A stretch of 38,761 nt of DNA from Pseudorhodoplanes sinuspersici (GTDB lineage Bacteria; Pseudomonadota; Alphaproteobacteria; Rhizobiales; Xanthobacteraceae): the NCBI GenBank assembly GCA_945878025.1, contig CAMDXM010000007.1, positions 1 through 38,761 on the forward strand, in the 5' to 3' direction. Shown piece after piece: positions 34,717-36,100 of the stretch. The notes below the pieces were generated by a model. The model saw nothing but the letters and a program-made list of their open reading frames with translations, was not told the origin of the DNA and ran no database searches. Positions within the stretch are counted from its first letter, which is position 1; every line of letters begins with the position of its first letter. The position numbers and the translations under genes were made by a program.

Positions 34717-34781
34717 GCGCGAAGCAGGATGGCGGAGAGGGAGGGATTCGAACCCCCGATACCCTTGCAGGTACGCCGCAT
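34717..34781 (-). repeat. Displaced 3' half of tRNA-Ser (att-like direct repeat copy)
   Basis: 65 bp identical to 35998-36062, running from the anticodon loop through the 3' CCA plus 13 bp beyond; lacks the 5' half. Confidence 0.92.
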
Positions 34782-34784
34782 CGC

Positions 34785-35099
34785 TCAAGCCGCGCGGACC
34801 CGAAGCCTCGTGATCTTGGAAACGTCTTCCTCGCGTTCCGCATGCCACACATCGTAAGCCGTCTGCATGCGGCTCCAGACGCCGGGGCCGTCGCCGAAAA
34901 GCTTGCCGAGCCGCACGGCGACAGCCGGCGACACGGGCTTGGCTTCACGCAGGATATCGTAAAGATGCTGGCGCGAGATGCCGAGCCTTTCCGCGATCTC
35001 GACCTTGCTCAACCCGGTCGCGGGAATGACATCGTTACGCAACAGCGCGCCCGGATGAGTGGGGCATCGGTTCGGATTGCGCTTCGCGGCATGGGCCAT
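34785..35099 (-). CDS. higA: HigA-type antitoxin (XRE/VapI family)
   Basis: HPGALLRNDVIPATGLSKVEIAERLGISRQHLYDILREAKPVSPAVAVRLGKLFG; directly follows higB. Confidence 0.92.
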   Translation of the reverse strand: MAHAAKRNPNRCPTHPGALLRNDVIPATGLSKVEIAERLGISRQHLYDILREAKPVSPAVAVRLGKLFGDGPGVWSRMQTAYDVWHAEREEDVSKITRLRVRAA

Positions 35100-35111
35100 G
35101 TTTCTATCTCT

Positions 35112-35390
35112 CTAGTGATATTGCTCAAAATCGACATCAACGGCGTTGCCGTTTTCAAAAGCGAATGTGATGCACCACGGGCCGTTCACATGCACTGTGT
35201 AGCGGGTGGGCTTGAACCCCTGTAAGCGGTGGAAATCGAAGCCGGGCAGATTCATTTCCTCGGGCCTTTCGATCGCATCCAAGCGGTCCAGCCGCCGCAA
35301 AATCCGCTCGTGAAGTTTCGAGTCGATCTTCGCACTGCGCCCGGTATTCCAAAGTGCCGCGAGGCCCTTGTGCGCAAAGCTTTCGATCAT
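35112..35390 (-). CDS. higB: HigB-type RelE superfamily toxin
   Basis: MIESFAHKGLAALWNTG...LPGFDFHRLQGFKPTRYTVHVNGPWCITFAFENGNAVDVDFEQYH. Confidence 0.92.
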   Translation of the reverse strand: MIESFAHKGLAALWNTGRSAKIDSKLHERILRRLDRLDAIERPEEMNLPGFDFHRLQGFKPTRYTVHVNGPWCITFAFENGNAVDVDFEQYH

Positions 35391-35398
35391 GGTTAAGT

Positions 35399-35415
35399 GT
35401 AAGCTAATTGCTTAC
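35399..35415. promoter_or_regulatory. Candidate HigA autoregulatory operator
   Basis: GTAAGC-taatt-GCTTAC, 8 bp upstream of the higB ATG. Confidence 0.5.
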
Positions 35416-35543
35416 GCGCGTCAACCCGGCGGCATAAGCTGGATCGGCTACGCAAGCGATAATGCGGCCCTCATTCGACTCCAATTAATTCGCGAAAAAA
35501 CGACGATGATGTTACGCTTACTGTAGATATATAGAGCATCCAA

Positions 35544-35894
35544 ATGGATTGGATACTGCCGTTGTTAGCGGGTCTAGGGATCGGCTCATTATTGAAGTCG
35601 ATCGCTGATCATTTCATGGCGCGACGCGCGAGCACGCATGATCGTTGGTATCAAGAGAAGCGCGAAACCTACTTGGGTTTGCTGAATGCACTTCATCAAG
35701 CGGCAATCCGTCCATCCGATGAGAATTCAAAGACATTCGCTCTATGGCACGCGCGTTGCGAATTGTTTGGATCAAAGGATGTTTCAGAATTCGCGCAAGC
35801 TATGATTGATACAAATCAGAATTTGCGCGATGAACGGAATGCAGCCTTTCGAAATCTGATTGACGCGATGAAGTCCGACCTTCATTCCAGCTAA
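35544..35894 (+). CDS. Small hypothetical protein with one N-terminal TM segment
   Basis: 116 aa, MDWILPLLAGLGIGSLLKSIADHFMARR; lower GC than flanks; inside the tRNA-bounded island. Confidence 0.65.
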   Translation: MDWILPLLAGLGIGSLLKSIADHFMARRASTHDRWYQEKRETYLGLLNALHQAAIRPSDENSKTFALWHARCELFGSKDVSEFAQAMIDTNQNLRDERNAAFRNLIDAMKSDLHSS

Positions 35895-35980
35895 GTGAAA
35901 TCAGGTATATTATTTGCTGTCCGCGTCGCGCCGCTTCTCAGCCCTAGGGCATCCTGCTTCGCTTTGAGTCGGGATGAAAT

Positions 35981-36010
35981 TCCTGCGAAGCGCGCCAGCG
36001 CGAAGCAGGA
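35981..36010 (-). terminator. Probable terminator hairpin of tRNA-Ser
   Basis: On the - strand TCCTGC-ttc-GCGC-tggc-GCGC-ttc-GCAGGA followed by ATTTC. Confidence 0.5.
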
Positions 36011-36100
36011 TGGCGGAGAGGGAGGGATTCGAACCCCCGATACCCTTGCAGGTACGCCGCATTTCGAGTGCGGTGCTTTCAACCACTCAGCCACCTCTCC
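36011..36100 (-). tRNA. tRNA-Ser (anticodon CGA), CCA encoded
   Basis: GGAGAGGTGGCTGAGTGGTTGAAAGCACCGCACTCGAAATGCGGCGTACCTGCAAGGGTATCGGGGGTTCGAATCCCTCCCTCTCCGCCA; acceptor, anticodon, long variable and T arms all readable. Confidence 0.96.

What the first reader, a model, noticed from the sequence alone, without database searches (positions are those of the whole stretch)
34717..36100. 1.2-kb higBA mini-island inserted at the anticodon loop of tRNA-Ser(CGA), with no integrase
65 bp at 34717-34781 are identical to 35998-36062. On the - strand, identity starts at the anticodon loop of the complete tRNA-Ser, runs through the variable and T arms and CCA, and continues 13 bp past the tRNA. That is the layout left by tyrosine-recombinase integration into a tRNA: a reconstituted tRNA at one end and a displaced 3' half at the other. 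Between the repeats are only higB, higA and one small TM protein. Inference: either the shrunken remnant of a larger island held by addiction, or a minimal cargo mobilised in trans.
Basis: partly seen in the sequence, partly recalled or inferred. Interest (0 to 1): 0.8.

Follow-up and report, generated by a model that had tools for sequence, protein, structure and literature searches.

The report
Tiny toxin-antitoxin islet beside a tRNA
A 1.2-kb scrap of foreign DNA, holding a toxin-antitoxin pair and a small helical (predicted membrane-anchored) protein, sits between a complete serine tRNA gene and a displaced copy of that tRNA's second half; it is best read as the shrunken remnant of a larger mobile element that has lost its own integrase.

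Summary
In detail: a 65-bp exact direct repeat (34717-34781 / 35998-36062) covers the 3' half of tRNA-Ser(CGA) plus 13 bp past it, and the 1216 bp between hold only an intact higBA pair and a 116-aa protein. No integrase lies in the islet. The genome's seven integrase-domain genes show no matching attachment core near those checked.

Six same-genus tRNA-Ser(CGA) loci are unoccupied, and the insert has no DNA match in seven same-genus genomes. Integrase-bearing elements use the same tRNA in two family members (17.2-kb prophage, 10.8-kb island). A 4.6-kb element at tRNA-Met in a third carries integrase plus higBA. A vapBC-only 1.1-kb islet lies between two complete copies of the same tRNA in a fourth.

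Two details depart from textbook integration: the repeat stops before the anticodon loop, which both integrase-linked anticodon-loop examples retain, and it runs 13 bp beyond the tRNA. The core lies 3 bp from the higA stop, where other islands at this tRNA keep their integrase, so I favour a deletion remnant (CIME-like) over trans mobilisation. Mobility is untested and close relatives are lacking. New member of a known kind; the recurrence of toxin-antitoxin-only islets is the interesting part.

The parts
34717..34781 (-). Displaced 3' half of tRNA-Ser(CGA) plus 13 bp past the CCA end (attL-like repeat)
   Evidence: Exact copy of 35998-36062; second copy is unique to this genome in a strict-break pattern search of 399 family and 398 order genomes
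34785..35099 (-). higA antitoxin, 104 aa; stop codon 3 bp from the repeat
   Evidence: TIGR02607 78.8 bits; C-terminus matches 16 homologues of the same length, so not truncated
35112..35390 (-). higB RelE-like toxin, 92 aa
   Evidence: PF05015 55.1 bits; phrog_3066 toxin of TA system
35396..35424 (-). Promoter-like site and GTAAGC-TAATT-GCTTAC palindrome (35399-35415), candidate HigA operator
   Evidence: Consensus scan (at background frequency) and inverted repeat; function inferred
35544..35894 (+). 116-aa small protein (TM116): N-terminal helix, probably membrane-inserted, plus helical bundle; family without a name
   Evidence: 84 homologues up to 75% identity; AlphaFold2 pLDDT 89.4, all helical; no PDB match at E<=0.001
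35950..36012 (.). 13-bp perfect inverted repeat (35950-35962 / 36000-36012) that includes 11 of the 13 bp past the tRNA; possible tRNA terminator hairpin
   Evidence: fold energy only z -1.5
35998..36062 (-). Second copy of the 65-bp repeat, within the complete tRNA (attR-like)
36011..36100 (-). Complete tRNA-Ser(CGA)
   Evidence: ARAGORN, Rfam RF00005 62.3 bits
36741..37232 (+). rplU, the neighbour of this tRNA in many relatives
   Evidence: PF00829; tRNA and rplU co-located across the family

Best explanation
The islet is the integrase-less remnant of a mobile element (prophage or genomic island) that integrated into tRNA-Ser(CGA) by site-specific recombination and was later cut down by internal deletion. 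Its gene content is now the higBA addiction pair and one small defence-associated protein. SHOWN: exact repeat, complete tRNA, intact higBA, unoccupied same-genus loci, integrase-bearing elements at the same tRNA in relatives. INFERRED: the deletion removed the integrase gene from between the displaced tRNA half and higA, taking the loop side of the attachment core with it and stopping 3 bp short of the higA stop codon; loss of higA would have freed the toxin, so deletions stopped there. INFERRED: excision by an anticodon-loop integrase is no longer possible, so the islet is probably fixed in place, though a T-stem-type integrase or homologous recombination could still remove it.
For: Tyrosine-recombinase signature at the locus. 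Unoccupied tRNA with no displaced half in G001, G002, G003, G004, G005, G007; the insert has no DNA match in 7 of 7 same-genus genomes. Same tRNA used by integrase-bearing elements: G226, 17.2 kb with phage-type genes, 60-bp core, P4-type integrase beside the displaced half; G015, 10.8 kb, 14-bp core, P4-type integrase beside the displaced copy. In both, the integrase occupies the place where the window has higA. G090 has a 4.6-kb element at tRNA-Met reduced to integrase, higBA and a terminase-small-subunit gene, with a core running 43 bp past the tRNA, so higBA retention in shrinking tRNA elements and cores longer than the tRNA both occur in the family. Both integrase-linked anticodon-loop displaced halves examined (G226, and the window genome's own tRNA-Lys half in L081) keep the whole loop; the window's does not. 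TM116 is low in GC (0.48 against 0.60-0.66 for most host genes).
Against: No larger relative of this islet (same core, same cargo, with integrase) was found. The repeat is 65/65 identical (95% upper limit on divergence 4.5%), so the duplication is recent, which leaves little time for integration followed by decay unless repeats are kept alike by recombination. The 13 bp past the tRNA are not conserved in relatives, so the element's core must have matched this lineage's own flank. The missing loop could instead mean the crossover was never at the loop.
Confidence: 0.58

Rival explanations
1. A minimal non-autonomous element that never carried an integrase of its own and is mobilised in trans by an integrase encoded elsewhere, in the manner proposed for hitcher elements.
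For: Identical 65-bp repeats suggest recent movement. G229 has an islet of comparable size with only vapBC between two copies of the same tRNA, and TM116 lies beside tRNA 3' ends in other genomes (L091 110 bp, L095 28 bp), as if such units arrive repeatedly. The host has several integrase genes.
Against: None of the genome's four non-Xer integrases examined has an 11-bp match to the core in the flanks held. The strict-break displaced half was found nowhere else in 399 family or 398 order genomes. In G229 both tRNA copies are complete, so the mechanism there may differ. No repeat partner was found for the tRNAs of L091 and L095.
Confidence: 0.2
2. Not site-specific integration: higBA and TM116 were inserted or were already beside the tRNA, and a 65-bp piece was duplicated by template switching or by homologous integration of a circle carrying a tRNA fragment.
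For: The ends of the repeat match no natural boundary: 13 bp past CCA and one base into the anticodon loop. The 13 bp form a perfect inverted repeat with sequence on the TM116 side only, as if TM116 and the tRNA were the older neighbours. TM116 sits beside tRNAs elsewhere without a displaced half.
Against: The block still covers the anticodon 3' stem to CCA in the correct orientation with a complete tRNA at the other end, the recognised signature. Long cores beyond a tRNA are also seen in an integrase-bearing element (G090).
Confidence: 0.14
3. Assembly error: the contig joins two haplotypes, or a circular and an empty form, at the 65-bp exact repeat.
For: The genome is a 365-contig draft, 91% complete, and exact repeats are where assemblers mis-join. 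Reads were not available.
Against: 65 bp is shorter than common assembly word sizes and reads. Even then, the junctions of the repeat with higA and of TM116 with the tRNA side would be real molecules. Identical HigA and HigB also occur in a second contig in the protein collection, whose context could not be read.
Confidence: 0.08

Closest known systems
CIME (cis-mobilizable element; decayed ICE/IME that keeps attL and attR; review PMC5704250)
   Same: Flanked by two attachment-like repeats at a tRNA, no integrase and no transfer genes, accessory cargo only.
   Different: About 1.2 kb. Derivation from an ICE or IME is not shown; the nearest integrase-bearing comparators here are phage-like or a restriction island. 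The left core may be damaged (loop missing).
tRNA-integrated genomic islands as defined by Islander (PMC4383910)
   Same: Complete tRNA, displaced 3' fragment in the same orientation, insert between.
   Different: Islander requires an integrase gene and a length filter, so this one would be discarded. The crossover class (anticodon or T-stem) cannot be assigned because the loop is absent from the displaced copy.
G226 17.2-kb prophage-like element at the same tRNA-Ser(CGA) (L119)
   Same: Same tRNA, same side, displaced 3' half (60-bp core).
   Different: Has a P4-type integrase beside the displaced half and phage-type genes; its core includes the anticodon loop and ends exactly at the tRNA 3' end.
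G090 4.6-kb integrase + higBA + terminase element at tRNA-Met (L147)
   Same: Small tRNA-flanking element with higBA (65-70% identity); repeat runs past the tRNA end.
   Different: Different tRNA; keeps a P4-type integrase and phage packaging genes; repeat copies have diverged; no TM116.
G229 1.1-kb vapBC islet at the same tRNA-Ser(CGA) (L116)
   Same: TA-only, no integrase, same tRNA, similar size.
   Different: Bounded by two complete tRNA copies of different alleles, so the insertion mechanism may differ.

Membership tests
tRNA-integrated genomic island (Islander definition) | Complete tRNA at one end and cognate displaced 3' fragment in the same orientation at the other | tested here: met
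tRNA-integrated genomic island (Islander definition) | Tyrosine integrase gene inside the island | tested here: not met
   Only higA, higB and TM116 between the repeats
tRNA-integrated genomic island (Islander definition) | Unoccupied site in relatives | tested here: met
   Six same-genus loci with a complete tRNA and no displaced half; no same-species genome was available
CIME | Retains attL and attR | tested here: inconclusive
   65-bp exact repeats, but the left copy lacks the anticodon loop kept by integrase-linked anticodon-loop comparators
CIME | Has lost integration and transfer genes | tested here: inconclusive
   None present; former presence not shown
CIME | Mobilised in cis after accretion with an ICE or IME | not testable with these tools
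   Needs an isolate and a helper element
higBA type II toxin-antitoxin module | Adjacent RelE-like HigB toxin upstream of HTH HigA antitoxin, both full length | tested here: met
   PF05015 and TIGR02607 over cut-off, C-terminus native
higBA type II toxin-antitoxin module | HigB toxic and neutralised by HigA | not testable with these tools
   Needs expression assay in a laboratory strain

The most novel reading that the evidence does not exclude
Small tRNA-flanked units made only of a toxin-antitoxin pair (with or without a defence-linked small protein) form a class of integrase-free hitchhikers that insert repeatedly at tRNA-Ser(CGA) and other tRNA 3' ends using recombinases supplied in trans: higBA+TM116 here, vapBC in G229.
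Probability: 0.13. Interest if true: 0.72.

Novelty: new member of a known kind. Interest (0 to 1): 0.42.

Why it matters
It gives a very small case for asking what remains when a tRNA-integrated element decays, and whether addiction genes decide it. Two further points have value: a second TA-only islet at the same tRNA in another genus, and an unnamed small-protein family (TM116) found beside TA modules, abortive-infection and FRG-type candidate defence genes and, in several genomes, beside tRNA 3' ends. Island finders that demand an integrase or a minimum length would miss such units.

Tried and rejected
Tandem-array idea (left flank itself an older island with a further tRNA fragment): no further copy in 22001-34716 above shuffled level, and the TetR-DUF3313 stretch has a 78% match in same-genus G005 about 300 kb from its tRNA, so the left flank looks like ordinary rearranged chromosome. 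First displaced-half patterns demanded a break exactly at the window's position and so missed other islands; a looser count found 8 more genomes with two matches. Of these, seven-genome inspection showed G226 as a true displaced half and six with two complete or near-complete tRNA copies (G137, G229, G232, G263, G284, G320); G105's second match lies on another contig with a different sequence. L117 and L118 gave no integrase hit with a home-made profile. Search for higBA+TM116 together: only G091 matched the TM116 part and none matched both. Viral contigs gave one TM116 locus. PDB fold search of TM116 gave no match at E<=0.001. Promoter and hairpin signals are no better than background. Literature searches for integrase-less TA islets at tRNAs gave nothing closer than the CIME concept.

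Full report
WHAT IS THERE. The 65-bp repeat is exact and at the stated coordinates, 1281 bp apart. The only tRNA in the window is tRNA-Ser(CGA), 36011-36100 on the minus strand. Read on the tRNA strand, the shared block begins at the last base of the anticodon loop (A38), runs to CCA and continues 13 bp. In the whole genome the block occurs only at these two places; the next best hits are the serine tRNAs with anticodons GCT and GGA. Between the copies are higA, higB and a divergent 116-aa gene, TM116. HigA ends with the same residues as 16 homologues of equal length, so the pair is intact. A palindrome GTAAGC-TAATT-GCTTAC overlaps a promoter-like site in front of higB, which would suit autoregulation by HigA (inference). 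The repeat starts 3 bp after the higA stop codon.

RELATIVES AT THE SAME LOCUS. The tRNA and rplU are co-located through much of the family. Six of the seven same-genus genomes gave a tRNA locus (G001-G005, G007); all have one complete tRNA and no displaced half on the 3' side, and the insert has no DNA match in any of the seven. The insertion is therefore probably specific to the window's lineage. The 13 bp past the tRNA are not shared by these relatives. The gene content to the left varies; xdhAB is in the same direction in G003, and the TetR-DUF3313 stretch has a 78% match in G005, about 300 kb from its tRNA. No same-species genome was available, so the true empty site has not been seen.

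LARGER ELEMENTS AT THE SAME tRNA. A loose pattern for the tRNA 3' half matched 319 of 399 family genomes; nine, including the window's, had two matches. Inspection of the eight others showed one true displaced half: G226, 17.2 kb, 60-bp core that includes the anticodon loop and stops exactly at the tRNA end, with a P4-type integrase next to the displaced half and phage-type genes. Six have two complete or slightly damaged tRNA copies on one contig; G105's second match is elsewhere. A separate case, G015, has a 10.8-kb island with integrase beside a 14-bp copy of the tRNA end. The stricter patterns that ask for a break at the window's exact position found only the window in 399 family and 398 order genomes, which says that this break point is unusual, not that islands at this tRNA are.

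THE BREAK POINT. In G226, and at a displaced tRNA-Lys half next to an integrase in the window's own genome (L081), the displaced half keeps the whole anticodon loop and part of the 5' stem. The window's copy keeps one base of the loop. Recombination at the loop should leave the loop in both copies. Either the loop side was later deleted, or the crossover lay elsewhere in the tRNA 3' half, or the repeat arose otherwise. The first is attractive because in G226 and G015 the integrase gene stands exactly between the displaced copy and the rest of the element, where the window has higA 3 bp from the repeat. A deletion that removed the integrase and ran into the core, but stopped before higA, explains the missing loop, the missing integrase and the tight junction together. 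That is inference, not proof.

THE CARGO ELSEWHERE. HigBA relatives at about 70% DNA identity occur in scattered family genomes. In G090 they sit in a 4.6-kb unit between tRNA-Met and a copy of its 3' end, with a P4-type integrase and a terminase small subunit gene: a shrinking phage-like element that kept higBA, with repeats that run 43 bp past the tRNA. In G229 the 1.1 kb between two copies of tRNA-Ser(CGA) holds only vapB and vapC; here both tRNA copies are complete and differ, so the mechanism may not be the same. TM116 homologues (84 proteins; 13 genome loci and one viral contig) lie next to VapBC (L088), an HTH antitoxin-like gene (L087), Abi_alpha/PDC-S47 (L086) and an FRG/PDC-S15 gene (L092). 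They are within about 110 bp of a tRNA 3' end in L091 and L095. With rough assumptions (50 tRNAs, 4.5 Mb, 150-bp zone) two of 13 loci is unexpected (p about 2e-4), though the loci were not chosen independently of similarity. In L086 and the viral contig L098 a shared block that includes TM116 begins inside tRNA-Lys. TM116 is predicted all-helical with good confidence and has no PDB match at E<=0.001. Its membrane insertion and any defence role are guesses.

MECHANISM AND VERDICT. Most likely the islet is a decayed tRNA-integrated element of the CIME kind (definition read in PMC5704250) kept at the size of its addiction module (0.58). A trans-mobilised minimal unit is possible (0.20); none of the four non-Xer integrases examined in this draft genome has a fitting core nearby. 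Duplication without site-specific recombination is a real rival (0.14) because both ends of the repeat are off the natural boundaries and the 13 bp pair with sequence on the TM116 side only. Assembly error remains (0.08); reads were not available. The exact identity of the copies puts the duplication at less than about 4.5% divergence ago, if repeats have not been homogenised. The islet is a new member of a known kind; the part worth following is whether TA-only islets at tRNAs are common once the integrase requirement is dropped.

Noticed in passing
L116:6459-7638 (G229): vapBC alone in about 1 kb between two complete, different tRNA-Ser(CGA) alleles; the left copy resembles the usual allele of its genus, the right copy an allele seen in another genus (L064).
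   Followed up: partly
window 35544-35894; L085-L098, L140: TM116: unnamed small helical protein family that turns up beside TA, Abi_alpha/PDC-S47 and FRG/PDC-S15 genes, several times beside tRNA 3' ends.
   Followed up: partly
L117, L118, L120-L125 (G320, G284, G137, G232, G263): Stretches of 8.8-59 kb bounded by two complete or near-complete tRNA-Ser(CGA) copies, the outer one slightly damaged in L117 and L118; no integrase hit in the parts read.
   Followed up: partly
L086:7809-11149 and L098:7809-11149: 99.97% identical block begins 25 bases inside tRNA-Lys(CTT); the viral contig differs to the left, as if a prophage had integrated in that tRNA and displaced its 3' part with the TM116 cluster.
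   Followed up: partly
L082 (G000 contig C123), upstream of the integrase: Integrase gene preceded by what reads as the 5' half of a tRNA-Thr(TGT), cut just after the anticodon, with no complete tRNA in the stretch held; possibly a 5'-fragment island.
   Followed up: no
L081 (G000 contig C135), 2060-2122: Integrase next to a displaced tRNA-Lys(CTT) 3' half with the whole anticodon loop: another island in the same genome.
   Followed up: partly
window 31649-31748 and 36180-36284: About 105-bp palindromic repeat, 92% alike, with many copies across the genome and family.
   Followed up: no
window 38377-38730: Small GIY-YIG endonuclease ORF (PF01541) near the right end of the window.
   Followed up: no
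window 2701-3900: Low-GC stretch (0.48-0.55) after lepA with a 279-aa ORF and a cytidine-deaminase-like ORF; may be acquired (annotation from reading, not searched).
   Followed up: no
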